From Planctomycetota bacterium (lineage in GTDB: Bacteria; Planctomycetota; Planctomycetia; Gemmatales; Gemmataceae), in assembly GCA_021413735.1 (NCBI GenBank), contig JAIOPV010000289.1, positions 1 through 32,995 on the forward strand: a stretch of 32,995 nt of DNA. The letters run 5' to 3'. The position numbers were made by a program, and so were the translations under genes. Position 1 is the first letter of the stretch, and the number at the start of each line of letters is the position of its first letter. Of this stretch, positions 969-17,473 are shown piece by piece. The notes below the pieces were generated by a model, which made no database searches, was not told the origin of the DNA, and worked only from the letters and a program-made list of their open reading frames with translations.

Positions 969-2516
969 TCAATTCTTGGATTGTTCGCCTTCTTTTGGTG
1001 GCGTTTCGCCCTCGGGCTTGCCGATCAAGTCGTTCACTCGCTTCAGTAACGCCGCGCCGTGTTCGGGCTGCACCATGTTCAGGTACGCCGCGATGCCCCG
1101 CAGATATTGCGAGAACGCTCCGACGTTTTCCGTGAATCGCGGGTGACGTTTCGCCTGCTCTTCAACGCTGGTCTTCTCACAGTTGTGGAGGATCGCACGC
1201 AGTTCCCGCCGCAGCTCTCGCGGCACTTGAAGCTTGTCGTTCACCACGATGCCCGTGACGACTTGCCGCTGCGAATCGCGAATGACACGGAACTTCTGCT
1301 GATTGATCGTGAAGCCTTCCTGCTGACACACCTGATCGACCCACCAACGGAATCGCCCGAGGTTGAGCCCCTCTGCCTTCGGGAACGAGAACGTGAGATC
1401 GTCGGCGTAGCGAGTGTAGGTTCCTTTGTTGGCTTCCGCGAGGCCACCGAGTCGGGCGTCGAGACGGCGACACATCAAGTTCGAGATGGCGGGCGACGTC
1501 GGGGCACCCTGCGGCAAAACAGCCGAGCCCCATTTCTTCGGGTCTGGCGTGTAGCAGCACAACCGAGCGAGCACCGGCGCGATCTGGTTCGATTTGTCTT
1601 CGGTGCCGAACATGCAGTTGCCGACCGGATAGCCCATGCTGGCGAACAGCCCGATCACGCGGAAGTAGTGGACCGTCGGGAAGAACTCTTTCAGGTCGAA
1701 CTTCACGACGAGTTCCGCCCCGACATGCGGGCCGGCATTGCTGACCGTGGAGCGACCATTCACGAAACCGTGCGCGGCGGGATGCGGCGGAACCTTGCTC
1801 AGAATGTGCTTCAGGATTTGCCGCTGCACCCACTTCAGTTGCTTCTTCGGAGCGCAGATTTTGCGGTCACTGCCGTCGCGTTTCGGAATGGTGTGCGTCG
1901 TGTACGGCCCGTCTTTGTTGTCGCTCGCCAGTAGGAAGTAACCGAGTTGGTTGGTCGATTTGATGTTCAGCAACTTGCGGAGCTGAGCCAGGTTCGTCAG
2001 CACTGGCAACTCGTTTTTCTCCAGTGTTCGCTTGCCGGGCTTGTGTCGCGTGACCTTCGTTTCTTCGCTTTGAAGCAGCCAGCCGCTCGTGTCCCAGTCG
2101 CCGCCCTTTTTGTGGGGCAACGCTACTTCACGAATCTTCGACTTGCGAAGTGCCCGCGAAACGTGGTTCCGCACTTCCATGTCGGGGTCTTTGGCGAGCC
2201 GACGCAGAACGCGAGCCGCGGCACGCTCGGGCATGTGTGCGGTGGCGTAACCGATCAGCAATCTTCGGCACTTTCCGTCTGGATTGGTGACGAGTGCCTC
2301 GAACTGCTCCCAGACGAGTTCATTCGCGCGATTGACGCACGGTTCGTAGGACGAGAATGCCCGCACATCGTCGAGCGTTTTCTGGAGTTTGAGGAACTCA
2401 TTCGGTAATTTGGAACAGTGTTGCTCGACCTTCTTGATGACGGCATCGTCGTGATCGGCGTTTGCGGGAAGTGGTCGGAAGAGCCATTCCGGTCCGGTGC
2501 GGGTCGTCGCAGACAT
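969..2516 (-). CDS. Retron-type reverse transcriptase with HEAT-like N-terminal extension
   Basis: RNA-dependent DNA polymerase of 515 residues. The palm motifs are complete: FDLKEFFP (first catalytic Asp, about residue 274), LPQGAPTSPAISNL (334-347) and YADD (370-373). Two marks specific to retron enzymes are present: NAxxH (NAGPH, 260-264) and VTG (420-422) followed by VPRELRRELRAILHN. In retrons these enzymes copy part of a structured RNA (msr-msd) starting from the 2'-OH of a guanosine in that RNA. The protein is longer than the common 300-350 residues. About 180 residues precede the core, with a HEAT-like stretch at 90-135 (VLRRLAKDPDMEVRNHVSRAL). Some myxobacterial retron enzymes also have an N-terminal extension. 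GAGGA stands 7 nt before the ATG. The usual ncRNA is not recognisable directly upstream. A candidate array in the same orientation lies at 4913-6290, beyond a divergent gene. Confidence 0.9.
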   Translation of the reverse strand: MSATTRTGPEWLFRPLPANADHDDAVIKKVEQHCSKLPNEFLKLQKTLDDVRAFSSYEPCVNRANELVWEQFEALVTNPDGKCRRLLIGYATAHMPERAAARVLRRLAKDPDMEVRNHVSRALRKSKIREVALPHKKGGDWDTSGWLLQSEETKVTRHKPGKRTLEKNELPVLTNLAQLRKLLNIKSTNQLGYFLLASDNKDGPYTTHTIPKRDGSDRKICAPKKQLKWVQRQILKHILSKVPPHPAAHGFVNGRSTVSNAGPHVGAELVVKFDLKEFFPTVHYFRVIGLFASMGYPVGNCMFGTEDKSNQIAPVLARLCCYTPDPKKWGSAVLPQGAPTSPAISNLMCRRLDARLGGLAEANKGTYTRYADDLTFSFPKAEGLNLGRFRWWVDQVCQQEGFTINQQKFRVIRDSQRQVVTGIVVNDKLQVPRELRRELRAILHNCEKTSVEEQAKRHPRFTENVGAFSQYLRGIAAYLNMVQPEHGAALLKRVNDLIGKPEGETPPKEGEQSKN

Positions 2517-2739: not shown

Positions 2740-4869
2740 ATGCCGAAGCAAGTTCCCTCCGATCATCCGCTGGCACGCACTTTCGCGTTGCTCGACCCCG
2801 ACTTCGCACCAGCGGCAGCGGCGACTCTCCAAGGCACTACCGACCCCGTCGCAATCGACGGCCTGGTCGAACTGCTGTTGGATCAGCGGGCCACTGCTGC
2901 GGCATGTTCGACGGCGTTGCGGAGCCTGGAACACGATACCGGTCCGCTTGTGTCAGATGCCGTGGTTCGGGCACTTGACAATCAGTATCCGACGATCCGC
3001 ATTCAGGCTGCGGCCGAAGTCGTGCGGCGCGGGCTATTCGATCTCGCCGCGAACAGCCTCGATCAGCACATTCGCACCGATCCGTTCTGGCAGGTTCGCC
3101 GTGCTGCTGTGAACGCACTCGGAGCCGATCCGACTTACCGGCGCTGGCTCGTGATGTTCGCCGCGACCGATCCGCACTGGCGGGTACGCTATGCGCTGGC
3201 TCACGTTCTGGTCGGTTGGGGCTACGACGAAACCGAACGTGCGACGGTGTTGGAACTGCTGCCCGAGACGCATTCGCGAGTGGTCAGGCTGCGCGATTAC
3301 CTCGCGTTCCGCTGGACCGGGGACCTTCCGCCAGAACGCCCGAGCGAGAACCCGGCGGAATGGTGCCCATTCTGGGACTGGGACCCCGCCGTGTTGTCGC
3401 GGCAGCTCGGCGAGCTTGGAAACGCGGGTCGCCGTGAGTCGCTTCACATTCTGACCAGGCTCGTGAACCACGCCGATGAGCGAGTGCGAGCGTGGGTGAT
3501 TCAGGCCCTCCGCGACGACGGCGACGTCACGCACTGGGCCGACGCACTTGCCCGGCTCGGCGATCCGCGTGAAGACACTGCACCTCCGCAAGCCGATCTC
3601 GTGAAAGGCTTGGAACTCGACCGCCTCGAAGCCGTGGCGCGGTTCATTTTGTCGCAAGCGTCTCCGGAACCCGCCGCGTTGTCGTGGGCACTCAGGCAAC
3701 TCGACGAATCGTTCCCCGCAGAGGAAGTGCAGACCGATTTGGAACGCCTCGGGGTTCAAACCAAGACCCCTCCCCAACCCCTCCCCCAAGGGGAGAGGGG
3801 CTTCAAACCTGGGAGTTCTGAGCCCCTCTCCCCTTGGGGGAGGGGTTGGGGAGGGGTTGTTTTGGCCAATCATCCCCATTCTCGTGCCGCGTCGCTGACT
3901 CCAGAGCGGGCACGCGAACTAATCGAGAACCCGACACTCGAAACGTCGTGGTTCGTGCTTGGTCATGCGGCGAAGATGTGCCGCGTTCCCGTGTGGAAGC
4001 TCGCCCCCGAAACGGAGTGGAAGCCGCCAGCGGAACCTCGCGAACCCGCCACTTCGCTCGCGTTGCCGCTAATCACACTGGTCAGGCCGCGACGACTCGG
4101 ACCGGGCGGGCCATTTGTGTCGCCGTTGGGCCTGTCCGGTCATTACGGCTTGCCTGTGGAGGGGTTCGCACGAGCAACGGAAGCCGGCGTGAATCTCTTC
4201 TTCTGGGAACCCAATTACGCCACGCTGACACGCTTCGTCACGCGGCTTTCGCCAGCAGATCGCCAGCAGATTCATCTTCTTGCGGGCACGTTCGAGGCCG
4301 AGCCGACGAAGATTCGCAAGGACGTCGAACGTGCCCTTCGCAACCTGAAACTCGACCGCCTCAGCGTGTTTCTCATCTTCTGGACGCAATCCTGGCAACG
4401 GATCACCCCCGACGTTCGCGACGTGCTGGAACGCCTCAAATCCGAGGGGAAAGTGCAAGTATTCGGGCTATCGACACATTCGCGGCCGCTGGCAGCAGAA
4501 GCGATTCGCGAGGGTTGGAATCCCGTGATGGTGCGCCACAGCGCCGCTCATCGCAAAGCCGAAACCGAGGTGTTTCCGCTGGCAATCGAACGCGGCACGT
4601 CGATCCTGACCTTCAACAACACCTGTTACGGCAGACTGCTCGACGACGGGCAATTCAGGCCGAGCGATTGCTTCCGCTTCACGCTGAACACGCCAGGAGT
4701 GTCGGCGTGCTTCACGGCACCGAGCACGCTGGAATACCTCGATGAAAACCTCGACGCCCTGCGGAACCCGGAGTTGGCCGACGACGTGCGAGAACGCTTG
4801 CTGAAACGCGGCGAATGGATGTATCGCGAAGACACGGTCTTCCGCAAGACGGTGCGAGCCGACGGGTGA
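2740..4869 (+). CDS. HEAT-repeat protein with degenerate aldo/keto reductase-like domain
   Basis: A 709-residue protein with no signal peptide. Residues about 25-310 form HEAT-like helical repeats (for example TDPFWQVRRAAVNALG and TDPHWRVRYALAHVLVG). Residues about 440-700 resemble an aldo/keto reductase barrel: KLDRLSVFLIFW, SEGKVQVFGLSTHSRPLAAEAI, then PLAIERGTSILTFNNTCYGRLL. The barrel looks catalytically altered. The usual His of the 'L-I-H-W' strand is Phe, and the Asp/Tyr segment near the start of the barrel reads FFWEPNYATL, so a binding or regulatory role is possible. Residues about 343-374 are encoded by an inserted palindromic repeat (3766-3857). AAGG at 2727-2730 precedes the ATG by 9 nt. 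It is transcribed divergently from the reverse transcriptase, whose N-terminus is also HEAT-like. A functional link between them is only a suggestion. Confidence 0.8.
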   Translation: MPKQVPSDHPLARTFALLDPDFAPAAAATLQGTTDPVAIDGLVELLLDQRATAAACSTALRSLEHDTGPLVSDAVVRALDNQYPTIRIQAAAEVVRRGLFDLAANSLDQHIRTDPFWQVRRAAVNALGADPTYRRWLVMFAATDPHWRVRYALAHVLVGWGYDETERATVLELLPETHSRVVRLRDYLAFRWTGDLPPERPSENPAEWCPFWDWDPAVLSRQLGELGNAGRRESLHILTRLVNHADERVRAWVIQALRDDGDVTHWADALARLGDPREDTAPPQADLVKGLELDRLEAVARFILSQASPEPAALSWALRQLDESFPAEEVQTDLERLGVQTKTPPQPLPQGERGFKPGSSEPLSPWGRGWGGVVLANHPHSRAASLTPERARELIENPTLETSWFVLGHAAKMCRVPVWKLAPETEWKPPAEPREPATSLALPLITLVRPRRLGPGGPFVSPLGLSGHYGLPVEGFARATEAGVNLFFWEPNYATLTRFVTRLSPADRQQIHLLAGTFEAEPTKIRKDVERALRNLKLDRLSVFLIFWTQSWQRITPDVRDVLERLKSEGKVQVFGLSTHSRPLAAEAIREGWNPVMVRHSAAHRKAETEVFPLAIERGTSILTFNNTCYGRLLDDGQFRPSDCFRFTLNTPGVSACFTAPSTLEYLDENLDALRNPELADDVRERLLKRGEWMYREDTVFRKTVRADG
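3766..3857. repeat. Perfect 37-bp inverted repeat inserted in frame inside a gene
   Basis: Arms 3766-3802 and 3821-3857 are exact reverse complements, 37 bp each, around an 18-nt centre. Each arm is built of C-rich runs, with a smaller inverted pair CCCC-AAGGGG inside. The repeat is translated in the HEAT/AKR gene as a Pro/Gly/Arg-rich insert (PPQPLPQGERG, then PLSPWGRGWGG) without breaking the frame. C-rich palindromes of this style are common between genes in GC-rich bacteria, so this looks like an intergenic element that landed in a linker between the HEAT and AKR parts. Confidence 0.9.
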
Positions 4870-4873
4870 AAGT

Positions 4874-4905
4874 GAAAGCCCACACGCCGAAACGTGTGGG
4901 CTTTC
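4874..4905 (+). terminator. Terminator hairpin after the HEAT/AKR gene
   Basis: A perfect 13-bp stem (GAAAGCCCACACG with CGTGTGGGCTTTC) with a 6-nt loop CCGAAA begins 5 nt after the stop codon. There is no long T-run after it on the plus strand. It also closes the downstream end of the minus-strand RNA array, 8 nt beyond the last unit. Confidence 0.7.
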
Positions 4906-4912
4906 GAGTTCC

Positions 4913-5069
4913 GTCGCCGAGCTACTCTCAAATCACACTCGCGCAGAGCGGCGCCAAACTATTGTTGTTGCCTGCGCAACGGCAGTTTGGCGCCGGTCGC
5001 GCATAACTGGTCGGCACTGAGGATCACCCACGGCGTAACGCCGCAGTTTTCGCTAACTCAACCGACGAC
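4913..5069 (-). ncRNA. Retron-like msr-msd unit 1 of the array (nearest the reverse transcriptase)
   Basis: Read on the minus strand. Outer arm a1 (complement of 5063-5069, then 5054-5059) pairs with a2 (complement of 4913-4924) using two G-U pairs that exist only on this strand. Directly after a1 comes G-C-G-A-A-A-A; the first G (opposite 5053) is in the place of a retron branching guanosine. A short hairpin with core CGGCG-TTA-CGCCG follows (5031-5043). Then comes the conserved stretch ending GTGCCGACCAG, a long hairpin (GGCGCCAAACT at 4950-4960 with 4984-4994), and GAGAGTAGC leading into a2. The structure is read by eye; the retron interpretation is inference. Confidence 0.7.
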
Positions 5070-5081
5070 GGAACCCAAACT

Positions 5082-5236
5082 CACGGATCGCGGGGCTACT
5101 TTCCTCCTGCGGCACGGTCTGCTCCGAGACCGCCCCTGGTGCGAGTCTCGGAGTAGACCCGATCTGAACTGGTCGGCACTGAAAACCACCCACGGCGTAA
5201 CACCGTGGTTTTCGCTAACTTCAACCGCGAACCGTG
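5082..5236 (-). ncRNA. Retron-like msr-msd unit 2
   Basis: Outer stem: 5225-5236 with 5082-5093, twelve positions with one mismatch, different in sequence from unit 1 but in the same place, plus GTTA/TAGC at its inner end. The short hairpin is CCACGGTG-TTA-CGCCGTGG (minus strand), changed at several stem positions relative to unit 1 while keeping the pairing. The long hairpin is 5116-5130 with 5144-5158 (15 bp; one G-T wobble that forms on the plus, cDNA-sense strand only). GGAAAGTAGC is conserved. The candidate branching G is opposite 5215. Confidence 0.72.
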
Positions 5237-5246
5237 AATCAAATGC

Positions 5247-5398
5247 GTGAGGTTGCCGGAGCTACTTTCCTCCCCGCGGCACGCAGCCCGTGCTGACGAG
5301 ATCTATCCGTCGGAACGGGCTGCAGTCAACTGGCTGGCACTGCGAACCATCCACGGCGTAACGCCGCAGTCTTCGCTAACTCCTGCCGACAACCCCAC
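5247..5398 (-). ncRNA. Retron-like msr-msd unit 3
   Basis: The best outer stem of the array: the minus-strand RNA copy of 5386-5398 pairs with that of 5247-5259 over 13 consecutive positions, two of them G-U, followed by AGTTA/TAGCT. Then come GCGAAGAC, the CGGCG-TTA-CGCCG hairpin, and a long hairpin with a 9-bp base (5283-5291 with 5315-5323) and a second helix TGACG/CGTCG further in. GGAAAGTAGC is conserved. The candidate branching G is opposite 5376. Confidence 0.72.
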
Positions 5399-5410
5399 AA
5401 AACCGTCGCT

Positions 5411-5547
5411 CACCACCGGGCACTTTCTTTACCGAAGGCCGGTCTTCCCGAGACTGATCCTGATTGTACCGAGGGAAGACTTGAACTGTCGGGCACCAAT
5501 AACCATCCCCAGCGTAGCGCTGGAGCAATCGCTATCCCTTGGTGGCT
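5411..5547 (-). ncRNA. Retron-like msr-msd unit 4 (most diverged)
   Basis: This copy has drifted most in sequence but keeps the structure. The short hairpin reads CCAGCG-CTA-CGCTGG (minus strand) instead of the usual CGGCG/CGCCG, so both sides changed together. The long hairpin is GTCTTCCC (5442-5449) with GGGAAGAC (5473-5480). ATAGCGA replaces TTAGCGA, and GAAAGTGCCC replaces GGAAAGTAGCC. Outer pairing is CCACC/GGTGG and GGG/CCC. The candidate branching G is opposite 5532. Confidence 0.65.
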
Positions 5548-5550
5548 TGT

Positions 5551-5736
5551 GAACTCACCGGTCTGGTGAAACTATCCTCCCTGGCACACCCCTCCCGGGT
5601 GGTCTGATTGTCGGGCACAGCCCGCAAACAGGACACTCGGGAGGGCCAACGCGGAACGCGGTGGCTGAACTGGTCGGCACTGGGAACCCTCCACGGCGTA
5701 ACGCCGCAGTCACGCTATCCCCCGACCGGTGAGTTC
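5551..5736 (-). ncRNA. Retron-like msr-msd unit 5
   Basis: The outer stem is a perfect 13-bp match between 5551-5563 and 5724-5736, again unrelated to the other units' arms. The short hairpin is CGGCG-TTA-CGCCG. The long hairpin is the largest regular one: CCTCCCG (5591-5597) with CGGGAGG (5638-5644), and inside it a bulged helix capped by CGGGC-ACA-GCCCG. The conserved AACTGGTCGGCACTG (plus strand) is intact. The a1 side reads ATAGCG. The candidate branching G is opposite 5715. Confidence 0.7.
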
Positions 5737-5747
5737 GTCTCAAGATT

Positions 5748-5906
5748 ACCACACACGCGACAGTCCGGCTACTCTCTCGAACACTTGCGTGACGCCGGCA
5801 CACGCCTGTCGTCGGCTGGCGTCGGACTCGAACTGGTGGGCATCATGAACCCTCCACGGCGTGACGCCGTGGCAATCGCTAACTTCTGAACCGTCGCAAG
5901 TTTGGT
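5748..5906 (-). ncRNA. Retron-like msr-msd unit 6
   Basis: Outer pairing is GCGAC/GTCGC plus a further imperfect helix (5748-5761 with 5893-5906). The short hairpin is a perfect CCACGGCG-TCA-CGCCGTGG. The long hairpin is GACGCC (5791-5796) with GGCGTC (5818-5823), extended by three pairs of which one is a plus-strand G-T wobble. TTAGCGA is conserved. The a2 region closely resembles that of the truncated unit 8, suggesting the two arose by duplication. The candidate branching G is opposite 5879. Confidence 0.68.
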
Positions 5907-6054
5907 GATCCGTCTCCCGGCTACTTTCCTCGGAACGCACGGGACAGGCACTTCCGTGCTCTGTCAGTGGTGCCTGTCCAATTCATCTGGTGGGCACTGA
6001 GAACCACCCACGGCGTAACGCCGCAGCATTCGCTAACTCGTGAGTTGACGGATC
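5907..6054 (-). ncRNA. Retron-like msr-msd unit 7
   Basis: The outer stem is a perfect 8-bp match, GATCCGTC (5907-5914) with GACGGATC (6047-6054). The short hairpin is CGGCG-TTA-CGCCG. The long hairpin is a perfect 10-bp stem, GGACAGGCAC (5942-5951) with GTGCCTGTCC (5970-5979). Both GGAAAGTAGCC and TTAGCGA are intact. It abuts unit 6 with no spacer. The candidate branching G is opposite 6033. Confidence 0.7.
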
Positions 6055-6066
6055 CGAGTTGAATTT

Positions 6067-6288
6067 ACCACACCCGCGACGGCCCGGCTACTTTCTGACC
6101 TGGGTGGGCGTCTGGAAACTCGGTGGGAGGTGTTGAGAGGCTGTGATTGTGGTTCGCTCGCTCCGCGAGCGGCTTGCGAACCCAGCCACACTTCCGCTCT
6201 CCCAACTGCTTCCGAACCGCTCGCGGAGCGAGCGGAACACAATTACAACTCCTCCGCATTTTCCACCGACTTTCCTGACGCTCACCCA
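6067..6288 (-). ncRNA. Truncated retron-like unit 8: a2 end plus very long hairpin, no msr part
   Basis: GAAAGTAGCCGGGCCGTCGC (minus strand, 6076-6095) matches the a2 side of the other units, especially unit 6. In place of the usual 10-20 bp hairpin there is a 72-nt inverted repeat (6101-6172 with 6217-6288; 58 of 72 positions match by hand alignment) around a 44-nt centre. The parts expected upstream on this strand (TTAGCGA, short UUA-loop hairpin, a1) are absent beyond 6288. The unit is therefore either broken or a different kind of element that captured the a2 end. The innermost 30 bp (6143-6172/6217-6246) are the best conserved and look like a separate REPIN nested in the hairpin. Confidence 0.5.
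6143..6246. repeat. Inner hairpin-pair repeat (REPIN-like) within the long inverted repeat
   Basis: Arms 6143-6172 and 6217-6246 (30 nt each, four mismatches) end in the word CGCTCGCTCCGCGAGCGG and its reverse complement. Each arm is itself partly palindromic (CGCTCG..CGAGCG). It has the two-hairpin layout of elements A and B but neither their stem nor their CTRAGRRAG tail. It sits about 130 nt upstream of the zinc-ribbon gene. Confidence 0.65.
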
Positions 6289-6375
6289 CAACCTTGATCC
6301 TTTCCACTTTCCACAGCACCTTCCGCACCGCATAATCCCGCTTGTGTTCCCTTCATCTCTCGGGGATGGTTTGTC

Positions 6376-7145: not shown

Positions 7146-8102
7146 TTATTCCGCTGGACGCACGGGCAGCAACACGGCGAGCCGGAAACCAACCCAGTGG
7201 TTCCGGCGCGCGACCGAGAGATTTCGACGGTGGCTGCTCTTGGTTGCCGTCACGCTCGTTCGCAAGAAGCACGCACCACGCACGACCGACTGAACGGGTT
7301 CGCCATCTGAGGGGTACGCGACTTTCGGATACGGTTCCGGGAATGCACCGATCACCGCGTCTTCGGTCGTCGGCAGGCACCACTCCGACACGTTGCCGAT
7401 CAATTCTTCGCAGCCGTAAGGCGACCGCACCCGCGAGAACTTCCCCACTTCGCACGTTCCCGTCACCGCGATCTGCGCGAGCTTCTTGGATGGCACGCTG
7501 TCGCCCCAAGGATATGTGCGTCCGTCCGTGCCGCGTGCGGCTTTCTCCCACAGCCATTCGGTCGGCAGCGTCCCCCCTGCCCACTTCGCGTAAGCCAGTG
7601 CGTCGAACAGCGACACCTGCGTGACGGGATGGCGTTCCTTTCCCTTCGGAGGCTTCCCGCTTCTCCAGTTGGAGAGGAAGCTTTCGTTATTCGGATGTTC
7701 CGCCGCGGGCGTATAGCCGGTTTCCGCACAGAACTTCGCGTACTGCTCATGCGTGACCGGGAAGCGGCCGAGTGAGAAGCCGGCGGTTTCGGCGGTCTTG
7801 TTCGCTGTGCCGTAGAGGAACTTCCCTGGCGGAATCCACACCATCTCGGAGCCGTCGAGCGGGTTCTGCCAGGTGAGATTCGCGGTGGTGCTGTCGGTGT
7901 GTTCGCACGGTAACACGAGGTCGTTTTCGCGGGCGAAGTCGAGGACGCCGTGCGCATCGGGGTTGCCCATGACGCTCGTGACGAGTCGCCATGCTGCCGA
8001 AGAACGTTTGGGGCTGGGTTGCCGTTTCGCGAGAAGCGTGAGTTCGTGCAGCGCCTTGGCCGACGGCGGCCCGACGGTGTTCGGGGTGTCGTCTTCGTCC
8101 AT
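7146..8102 (-). CDS. SUMF1/formylglycine-generating enzyme-fold protein, probably not a sulfatase activator
   Basis: A 318-residue protein. Residues about 85-312 are a SUMF1 (FGE-sulfatase) domain: WQNPLDGSEMVWIPPGKFLYG, FPVTHEQYAKFC, HPVTQVSLFDALAYAKWAGG, LPTEWLWEKAARG, YPWGD, ELIGNVSEWC, and a C-terminal VGFRLAV. True formylglycine-generating enzymes carry two copper-binding cysteines shortly after the RGG(S) motif. Here that stretch reads RGACFLRTSVTATKSSHRR and both positions are non-Cys. It therefore more likely belongs to the large group of SUMF1-fold proteins with other or unknown roles. The first 80 residues show no known domain. It is the last gene of the phosphatase-ClpS-SUMF1 operon, 78 nt after clpS. 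Confidence 0.85.
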   Translation of the reverse strand: MDEDDTPNTVGPPSAKALHELTLLAKRQPSPKRSSAAWRLVTSVMGNPDAHGVLDFARENDLVLPCEHTDSTTANLTWQNPLDGSEMVWIPPGKFLYGTANKTAETAGFSLGRFPVTHEQYAKFCAETGYTPAAEHPNNESFLSNWRSGKPPKGKERHPVTQVSLFDALAYAKWAGGTLPTEWLWEKAARGTDGRTYPWGDSVPSKKLAQIAVTGTCEVGKFSRVRSPYGCEELIGNVSEWCLPTTEDAVIGAFPEPYPKVAYPSDGEPVQSVVRGACFLRTSVTATKSSHRRNLSVARRNHWVGFRLAVLLPVRPAE

Positions 8103-17329: not shown

Positions 17330-17473
17330 TTCGCGGCAACGAGCCAGCGAAAACTGCGGCGTTACGCCGTGGGTGGATTGCAATGCCGGCCAGAACGCAC
17401 CCTCCATCGGGGTGAATGACAGGTTCTTCACCCCGATCGGAGGGTGCAGAGATCGAAAGTAGCTGGCCGCGAA
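17330..17473 (+). ncRNA. Solo retron-like msr-msd unit, opposite orientation to the array
   Basis: Same plan as the array units, on the plus strand. The outer stem is TTCGCGG (17330-17336) with CCGCGAA (17467-17473) and CCAGC (17344-17348) with GCTGG (17462-17466). AGCGAAAACTGCGGCG follows directly, G17347 being the candidate branching base. The short CGGCG-TTA-CGCCG hairpin, GTGGGTGG and ATGCCGGCCAG are conserved. The long hairpin is unrelated in sequence to the others: GCACCCTCC plus ATCGGGGTGAA (17397-17416) with TTCACCCCGAT, a bulged C, and GGAGGGTGC (17427-17447). Then GAAAGTAGC and a2. It lies 15 kb from the reverse transcriptase, so any use of it would be in trans. Confidence 0.72.

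What the first reader, a model, noticed from the sequence alone, without database searches (positions are those of the whole stretch)
4913..6290. Tandem array of retron-like msr-msd RNA units
Seen: seven ~135-185 nt units in a gene-free region, same orientation, each with an outer stem (5-13 bp, different sequence per unit but always paired), TA-GCGA directly after the first arm, a short UUA/UCA/CUA-loop hairpin whose stem co-varies (CGGCG/CGCCG, CCACGGTG/CGCCGTGG, CCAGCG/CGCTGG), a conserved linker, a long hairpin of unrelated sequence, and GGAAAGTAGC leading to the second arm. Known: retron ncRNAs have exactly the order a1, branching G in an AGC context, short msr hairpins, long msd hairpin, a2; from memory the Eco1 RNA also reads TTA-GCGA at the end of a1. 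Inference: this is a multi-cassette set of msr-msd templates for one reverse transcriptase. Retrons normally have one template; a tandem array of seven with different msd hairpins would be new.
Basis: partly seen in the sequence, partly recalled or inferred. Interest (0 to 1): 0.93.

Follow-up and report, generated by a model that had tools for sequence, protein, structure and literature searches.

The report
Retron with many template RNAs
A planctomycete bacterium carries a retron-type reverse transcriptase near a row of seven similar template RNAs, each with its own different hairpin, which suggests that one enzyme makes a whole set of small DNAs instead of the usual single one.

Summary
Seven minus-strand units have the retron order: arm, TAGC, 8-bp hairpin with 3-nt loop, long hairpin of unrelated sequence, GGAAAGTAGC-like motif, matching arm. 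Arms pair within units, not between them: 1 of 5040 pairings, 0 of 100,000 shufflings of 78 units. The short hairpin covaries in 6 of 8 pairs. A retron reverse transcriptase (RT; best PADLOC model RT_XIII) lies 2.4 kb away on the same strand. Of 397 class genomes, the 18 with this RT clade all have detected units, against 5 of 379 without it. A HEAT/aldo-keto-reductase-like gene occurs in the same 18 of 95 family genomes. Unit numbers vary: 16 of 18 RT genomes have two or more, two have one. Units also lie scattered, many with a promoter-like box, and about half carry ACAGRT. A sister type XIII clade has its own multi-copy RNA family. Best reading: a multi-template retron, a new variant of a known kind. 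No transcript, msDNA or defence phenotype has been measured; the main retron classification paper could not be read.

The parts
969..2516 (-). Retron-type reverse transcriptase, 515 aa, with ~160-aa N-terminal extension
   Evidence: PF00078 E 6.6e-19; PADLOC RT_XIII E 3.8e-111; Ec86 RT in PDB E 8.6e-40; NAGPH, YADD, VVTG
2740..4869 (+). HEAT-repeat plus aldo-keto-reductase-like barrel protein (709 aa), proposed partner/effector
   Evidence: Pfam HEAT_2 and Aldo_ket_red; model pLDDT 82.7; Foldseek to AKRs; found in the same 18 of 95 family genomes as the RT clade
4874..4905 (.). 13-bp perfect hairpin just past U7, between the convergent HEAT-AKR gene and the array; possible terminator
   Evidence: inverted repeat I14; function inferred
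4903..5079 (-). Unit U7 (msr-msd with outer arms)
   Evidence: R1 match 4999-5063, 75.3 bits (R1 was built from U1-U7, so these seven match by construction); 18-bp outer stem
5080..5238 (-). Unit U6
   Evidence: by construction; own a1:a2 -32.7 kcal/mol; fold
5246..5399 (-). Unit U5
   Evidence: by construction; 14-bp outer stem
5412..5546 (-). Unit U4; alignable with a G022 unit, the short hairpin changed on both sides
   Evidence: by construction; 6-bp outer stem
5551..5736 (-). Unit U3; counterpart of L067:5442 in G022
   Evidence: by construction; 13-bp outer stem; alignment
5756..5898 (-). Unit U2
   Evidence: by construction; 11-bp outer stem
5907..6054 (-). Unit U1, first of the array
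   Evidence: by construction; 8-bp outer stem
6062..6072 (-). Promoter-like TGTGGTAAATT upstream of U1
   Evidence: sequence; enrichment of TANNNT before first/solitary units; activity inferred
6065..6288 (-). Probable truncated unit: 72-nt-arm hairpin, GAAAGTAGC and arm-like sequence, no msr found
   Evidence: I1 and D4
7146..8102 (-). FGE-sulfatase (SUMF1-like) gene; its relatives lie next to the RT in other genomes, here displaced
   Evidence: PF03781 E 4e-41; next to RT in 16 of 17 relative loci
17330..17473 (+). Solitary eighth full unit (CAGC variant, ACAGGT loop)
   Evidence: R1 match 17337-17401, 53.4 bits; fold z -6.1

Best explanation
It is a retron in which one reverse transcriptase uses many alternative msr-msd templates. 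The array is transcribed on the minus strand, probably as one precursor from a promoter before U1 with some inner starts (inferred). Each unit folds by its own a1:a2 stem, which ends right at the TAGC guanosine. The RT recognises the shared 8-bp/3-nt-loop hairpin, primes on that guanosine and copies the unit's own hairpin from just inside the GTAGC end, giving one msDNA species per unit (inferred from the retron anatomy). The same RT would also serve solitary units elsewhere in the genome (inferred). The HEAT-AKR protein and the FGE-like protein are the most likely accessory/effector pair, held in check by RT-msDNA complexes as in known retron defence (inferred). Different hairpins, often with a common ACAGRT loop, would then be several sensors or baits feeding one effector (inferred). 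Shown by computation: anatomy, pairing, covariation, co-occurrence, gene linkage. Not shown: any transcript, msDNA or phage phenotype. The confidence given is for the first sentence.
For: a1:a2 pairing; SL1 covariation, 6 of 8 pairs, 0 of 500 shuffles, and 99.8% paired cells against at most 63.4% when slid; a similar unit in seven genomes with 14 of 49 predicted pairs changed on both sides; NAXXH, YADD and VTG in 18 of 18 RT orthologues; RT clade and units 18 of 18 against 5 of 379 (Fisher 5e-27, not corrected for kinship); within the genus 10 of 10 against 3 of 9 (p 0.003); HEAT-AKR gene in the same 18 of 95 genomes and next to units where the RT is on another contig (G088, G050; G019); FGE-like gene next to the RT in 16 of 17 relatives; TANNNT before 43 of 57 first/solitary units against 7.5 in shuffles; ACAGRT in 40 of 78 msd against 1.6 in shuffles. 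Retron anatomy as in review PMC6868368 sections 6 and 7.
Against: Five genomes have units but no RT of this clade; one (G013) is rated 100% complete. In 8 of 18 RT genomes no unit was found in the RT locus. Two of the 18 (G044, G051) show a single unit at E up to 1e-5, so many templates is not a rule of the clade, unless R1 misses divergent ones. U2 and U4 fold no better than shuffles. Two of 8 SL1 pairs show no paired change. 50 of the 76 standard pairs next to the priming site are G-U, and 13 of 92 are G with G. 17 of 83 units in RT genomes have fewer than 8 uninterrupted outer pairs. ACAGRT is absent from all seven array units of the window. No phage link was found.
Confidence: 0.85

Rival explanations
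1. Only one or two units are working templates; the rest are duplicated, decaying or retrotransposed copies, as proposed for Ne160.
For: Precedent in PMC6868368 section 9; a truncated unit at 6065-6288; 17 of 83 units of RT genomes with weak outer stems; a G010 unit (L084:5885-5949) whose arms no longer pair, 3 bp.
Against: Own-arm pairing is kept across units of different arm sequence; counterparts in other species keep hairpins by paired changes; 66 of 83 units in RT genomes keep at least 8 outer pairs; window msd hairpins are not copies of one another.
Confidence: 0.1
2. The units are structured small RNAs with another job (regulation, or RNA baits) that came from retron templates and no longer need reverse transcription.
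For: Solitary units with their own promoter-like box; units not in the RT locus in 8 of 18 genomes; genomes with units and no RT of the clade: four in the order, five in the class sample.
Against: Every genome found with the RT clade has units; the priming AGC and the GTA end next to the paired arm are kept (TAGC in 96 of 103; though AGC/AGA was required by the anchor search).
Confidence: 0.07
3. A diversifying or adaptive repertoire: msd hairpins are turned over quickly and chosen against current phages.
For: msd sequences differ between units and species while the frame stays; unit numbers vary between relatives.
Against: No match of the array in phage or plasmid records at the sensitivity used; some msd hairpins are shared between species; no acquisition gene was noticed, though none was searched for.
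Confidence: 0.05

Closest known systems
Type XIII retrons (PADLOC RT_XIII, SWIM_XIII, HEAT-ARM_XIII)
   Same: RT_XIII is the best RT model. The same genome holds a locus with HEAT-ARM_XIII, SWIM_XIII and RT_XIII hits (L106). Sister clade B has 2-3 copies of its own RNA in each of the four loci looked at and 1-7 matches per genome in 26 of 95
   Different: The window clade is separate (100/100), scores lower on RT_XIII (370 bits against 518-535 for three sister RTs), shows no SWIM_XIII and only a weak HEAT match to HEAT-ARM_XIII, and goes with HEAT-AKR and FGE-like genes
Retron-Eco1 (Ec86) and other classical retrons
   Same: a1/a2, TAGC priming site, 8-bp/3-nt-loop msr hairpin, long msd hairpin, RT motifs
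   Different: The review describes msr and msd in one cassette with the RT; here seven units in a row plus others elsewhere
Retron-Nex1 (Ne160) repeats of Nannocystis exedens
   Same: Several duplicated msr/msd repeats, no RT within a kilobase (PMC6868368 section 9)
   Different: There read as duplications; here units have unrelated msd hairpins, matched arms and a linked RT clade. The original papers were not read
Engineered retron arrays (Gonzalez-Delgado et al. 2024, Nat Chem Biol)
   Same: By its title, several templates used together for multi-site editing; seen only as a reference in seven papers, the paper itself is not held
   Different: Man-made for genome editing; the present array is natural

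Membership tests
Retron | Retron RT with NAXXH, YXDD and VTG | tested here: met
   18 of 18 orthologues; PADLOC and PDB matches
Retron | Complementary 5' and 3' arms of about 8-30 nt, ending at the priming G | tested here: met
   at least 8 uninterrupted pairs in 66 of 83 units of RT genomes
Retron | Priming guanosine in TAGC (or CAGC, GAGC and other listed variants) | tested here: met
   TAGC in 7 of 7 window array units, CAGC in the solitary one; TAGC in 96 of 103 units, AGC/AGA having been required by the anchor search
Retron | msr with 1-3 hairpins of about 7-10 bp | tested here: met
   8-bp SL1 with covariation; no second hairpin in the 70-sequence fold
Retron | Long msd hairpin | tested here: met
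   predicted in most of 78 units, judged by eye; paired changes in one unit family
Retron | msr-msd in the same cassette as the RT | tested here: inconclusive
   array 2.4 kb from the RT in the window with an opposite gene between; not in the RT locus in 8 of 18 genomes
Retron | Branched RNA-DNA (msDNA) produced | not testable with these tools
   needs ssDNA sequencing or in vitro priming
Type XIII retron (features taken from PADLOC model names) | RT closest to RT_XIII | tested here: met
   370 bits, next best 310
Type XIII retron (features taken from PADLOC model names) | SWIM_XIII protein at the locus | tested here: not met
   no hit among the 13 window proteins scanned; smaller or unscanned ORFs not tested
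Type XIII retron (features taken from PADLOC model names) | HEAT-ARM_XIII protein at the locus | tested here: not met
   only a weak local HEAT match, 18 bits, E 8e-5, against 1566 bits at L106

The most novel reading that the evidence does not exclude
A retron with a genome-wide template repertoire: one RT turns an array and scattered solitary RNA genes into many different msDNAs, many sharing an ACAGRT (msDNA: AYCTGT) loop, which report to one HEAT-AKR/FGE effector pair, so that several phage activities can be sensed by one system. A second RT clade in the same family has the same habit with its own template family.
Probability: 0.35. Interest if true: 0.93.

Novelty: new variant of a known kind. 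Interest (0 to 1): 0.82.

Why it matters
Retrons are described as one RT with one template. A natural system in which one RT serves many templates would separate template recognition from msDNA content, give a natural test of which msDNA features the effector reads, and offer a ready model for making several ssDNAs in one cell. It also adds two candidate partner genes to the type XIII-like retrons.

Tried and rejected
Rfam gathering search of the window: no hit. CRISPR, integron attC and plain tandem-repeat readings were considered by inspection and dropped: the units are not identical repeats, arms pair only within a unit, and the RT co-occurs. Phage and plasmid similarity of the array: no match at E 0.01. 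The idea that units in the RT-less complete genome G013 have decayed was tested and not supported (2 of 4 still have 8 or more outer pairs). A fixed second msr hairpin was not found in the 70-sequence fold.

Rows dropped and choices made: of 83 R1 matches, one reverse-strand match had no anchor and 78 of the other 82 were used (four dropped for a poor end motif or N); of 26 further places, 25 were used. 70 of the 83 went into the covariation alignment; I left out by hand partial rows, a row with N and rows with long gaps or insertions. For the seven-genome unit family five members came from clustering and two (L100, L091) were added by hand; one member (G018) is from a genome without the RT clade and one (G010) lacks most of its first arm. 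The TANNNT range and the ACAGRT motif were chosen after looking at sequences; ACAGGT was then also the commonest hexamer. Large genome searches score few candidates per genome with stricter filters (13 for R1, 3 for the RT), so misses are possible; the class sample is 397 genomes drawn from a larger group. In G019 the HEAT-AKR evidence is a fragment at a contig end; in G044 the FGE match is split in two frames.

Literature: Mestre et al. 2020, the classification paper, is not held, so multi-copy type XIII templates may already be noted there. Ten paper searches, seen as listings, showed no title or abstract start describing natural tandem msr-msd arrays; the phrase 'retron arrays' in seven papers proved to be a reference to one engineering paper that is not held. 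Of PMC6868368 I read sections 6, 7 and 9, the outline and passages; of PMC12548924, PMC8867640, PMC9252829 and the papers only term-search passages. The AKR catalytic tetrad is recalled: aspartate, lysine and histidine seem replaced in HEAT-AKR (by eye), not tested.

Full report
WHAT IS THERE. The window is contig C16 of a 9.8-Mb genome. Its nearest named records are titled mostly Gemmata or Gemmataceae, with Limnoglobus roseus, one 'Planctomycetia' and one 'Singulisphaera' MAG. On the minus strand between 4903 and 6054 lie seven units, U1 (first transcribed) to U7. D1 shows a shared 57-nt core at spacings of 154-184 nt. Each unit reads a1 - TAGCG - hairpin SL1 (8 bp; loop TTA, TCA or CTA) - linker - long hairpin - GGAAAGTAGC-like motif - a2.

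IS IT MORE THAN CHANCE. For the seven units the a1:a2 duplexes within units sum to -214.0 kcal/mol, which only the true pairing among 5040 permutations reaches. For 78 units of the window and relatives, own pairs average -31.0 and foreign pairs -18.2 kcal/mol; 0 of 100,000 permutations reach the own sum; the own partner ranks first for 33 of 78, and a few units rank near the bottom. SL1 on 70 sequences: 99.8% of cells paired, 6 of 8 pairs with changes on both sides, 0 of 500 shuffles as high. A similar unit aligned over seven genomes has 14 of 49 predicted pairs with changes on both sides: 6 in the outer stem, 1 in SL1, 7 in the msd hairpin; a few pairs are broken in one or two rows. Folding energy is no better than shuffles for U2 and U4 (z -0.4 and -0.5); the other six window units give -3.0 to -6.1. 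The outer stem ends at the TA before the priming G: the base before TA and the base after GTA form a standard pair in 76 of 92 units counted, 50 of these G-U, while 13 are G with G.

THE REVERSE TRANSCRIPTASE. The 515-aa RT at 969-2516 is on the same strand, 2.4 kb from U7. It matches RT_XIII best in PADLOC (E 3.8e-111) and Ec86 RT best in the PDB. NAXXH, YADD and VTG are present in 18 of 18 orthologues. In a tree of 36 RT domains its 18 orthologues form one side of a branch with 100/100 support, apart from two further groups, B and C. Three RTs of B and C that were scanned score 518-535 bits on RT_XIII; SWIM_XIII was found in the two loci scanned for it, HEAT-ARM_XIII in the one.

CO-OCCURRENCE. 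A covariance model of the seven msr parts (R1) finds units (E up to 1e-5) in 23 of 397 class genomes; the RT clade (E up to 1e-80) is in 18 of the 397. All 18 have units; 5 of 379 without it do: G013, G018, G025, G030 and G200, rated 100, 82, 68, 69 and 83% complete. Fisher p is 5e-27, not corrected for kinship; inside the genus 10 of 10 against 3 of 9, p 0.003. In the 18 RT genomes the count at E up to 1e-5 runs from 1 (G044, G051) to 11 (G010); 16 have two or more.

PARTNER GENES. The HEAT-AKR gene (2740-4869) is found (E up to 1e-30) in 18 of 95 family genomes, the same 18 as the RT clade, in G019 only as an end-of-contig fragment. Units lie beside it in 10 of 18 genomes; in three of these (G088, G050, G019) the RT is on another contig. 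In the other eight no unit was found in the 14-16-kb RT locus. An FGE-sulfatase-like gene is next to the RT in 16 of 17 relative loci; in the 17th (G092) the RT is at a contig end; in the window it is displaced to 7146-8102. A structure model of HEAT-AKR (pLDDT 82.7) has a helical solenoid and a barrel most like aldo-keto reductases. Partner roles are inferred from association.

SOLITARY UNITS, PROMOTERS, LOOP. Besides the array the genome has a unit at window 17330-17473 (+) and a pair on contig C22. Among 57 first or solitary units 43 have TANNNT starting 20-48 nt before TAGC, against 7.5 in shuffles (highest 15); among 45 inner units 13, against 4.5 (highest 10). So first and solitary units probably have their own promoter and inner units are mostly co-transcribed. 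ACAGRT stands in 40 of 78 msd parts against 1.6 in shuffles (highest 5); of 99 units considered later 49 have it, in 42 of them in the apical loop of the predicted fold. None of the seven array units of the window has it; the solitary one does. Some msd hairpins are shared between species, but 74 of 103 fall in no cluster.

A SECOND FAMILY. Sister clade B has its own repeated RNA with a similar SL1, 2-3 copies in each of four loci. Its model R2 finds copies in 26 of 95 family genomes, 1 to 7 per genome; G074 has seven, three of them in tandem. Several template-like RNAs per RT may thus be a wider habit. Arm pairing and RT co-occurrence of this family were not tested in numbers.

HOW IT PROBABLY WORKS. 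Review PMC6868368 (sections 6, 7) says that RT-Eco1 binds an msr piece with an 8-bp stem and a 3-base loop through its region Y, and that RT and msr must usually be cognate. The shared SL1 has that shape, so one RT should accept all units whatever their msd. Priming at TAGC and copying of each hairpin would give one msDNA per unit. The use of several msDNAs, most simply as several sensors or baits for one effector, is inference.

VERDICT. Retron membership is met on the sequence features tested, tight linkage to the RT is inconclusive and msDNA is untested. It is not a canonical type XIII retron: two protein features named by PADLOC were tested and not met. Precedent for several msr/msd repeats exists (Ne160), engineered arrays exist by title, and the classification paper was not readable, so I call it a new variant of a known kind.

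Noticed in passing
window 17330-17473 (+): An eighth full unit on the other strand, CAGC priming variant, ACAGGT loop, best folding z-score of the eight window units.
   Followed up: yes
window 6065-6288: 72-nt-arm imperfect hairpin ending in GAAAGTAGC and an arm-like stretch 88% like the U2 end: a truncated unit without msr, or a different inserted hairpin.
   Followed up: partly
L107, L109, L110, L113: Sister retron clade B with its own multi-copy template-like RNA; by the R2 model genome G074 has seven copies, three in tandem.
   Followed up: partly
L106 (contig C24 of the same genome): Type XIII locus with HEAT-ARM (1712 aa), SWIM (625 aa) and RT (452 aa); with the RTs of C16 and C237 this genome carries three retron RT kinds.
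   Followed up: partly
window 7146-8102 (-): The FGE-like gene lies away from the RT here, while it is next to the RT in the 16 relative loci where it was seen.
   Followed up: partly
L084 5863-6042: In G010 one unit has arms that no longer pair (3 bp) while its G009 counterpart has 15, suggesting recombination between units.
   Followed up: no
window 2740-4869: The aldo-keto-reductase-like barrel seems to lack the usual catalytic residues (recalled, by eye) but has its own invariant ones.
   Followed up: no
G044 and G051: Two genomes with the RT clade show a single unit, so a one-template form of the same retron may exist.
   Followed up: no
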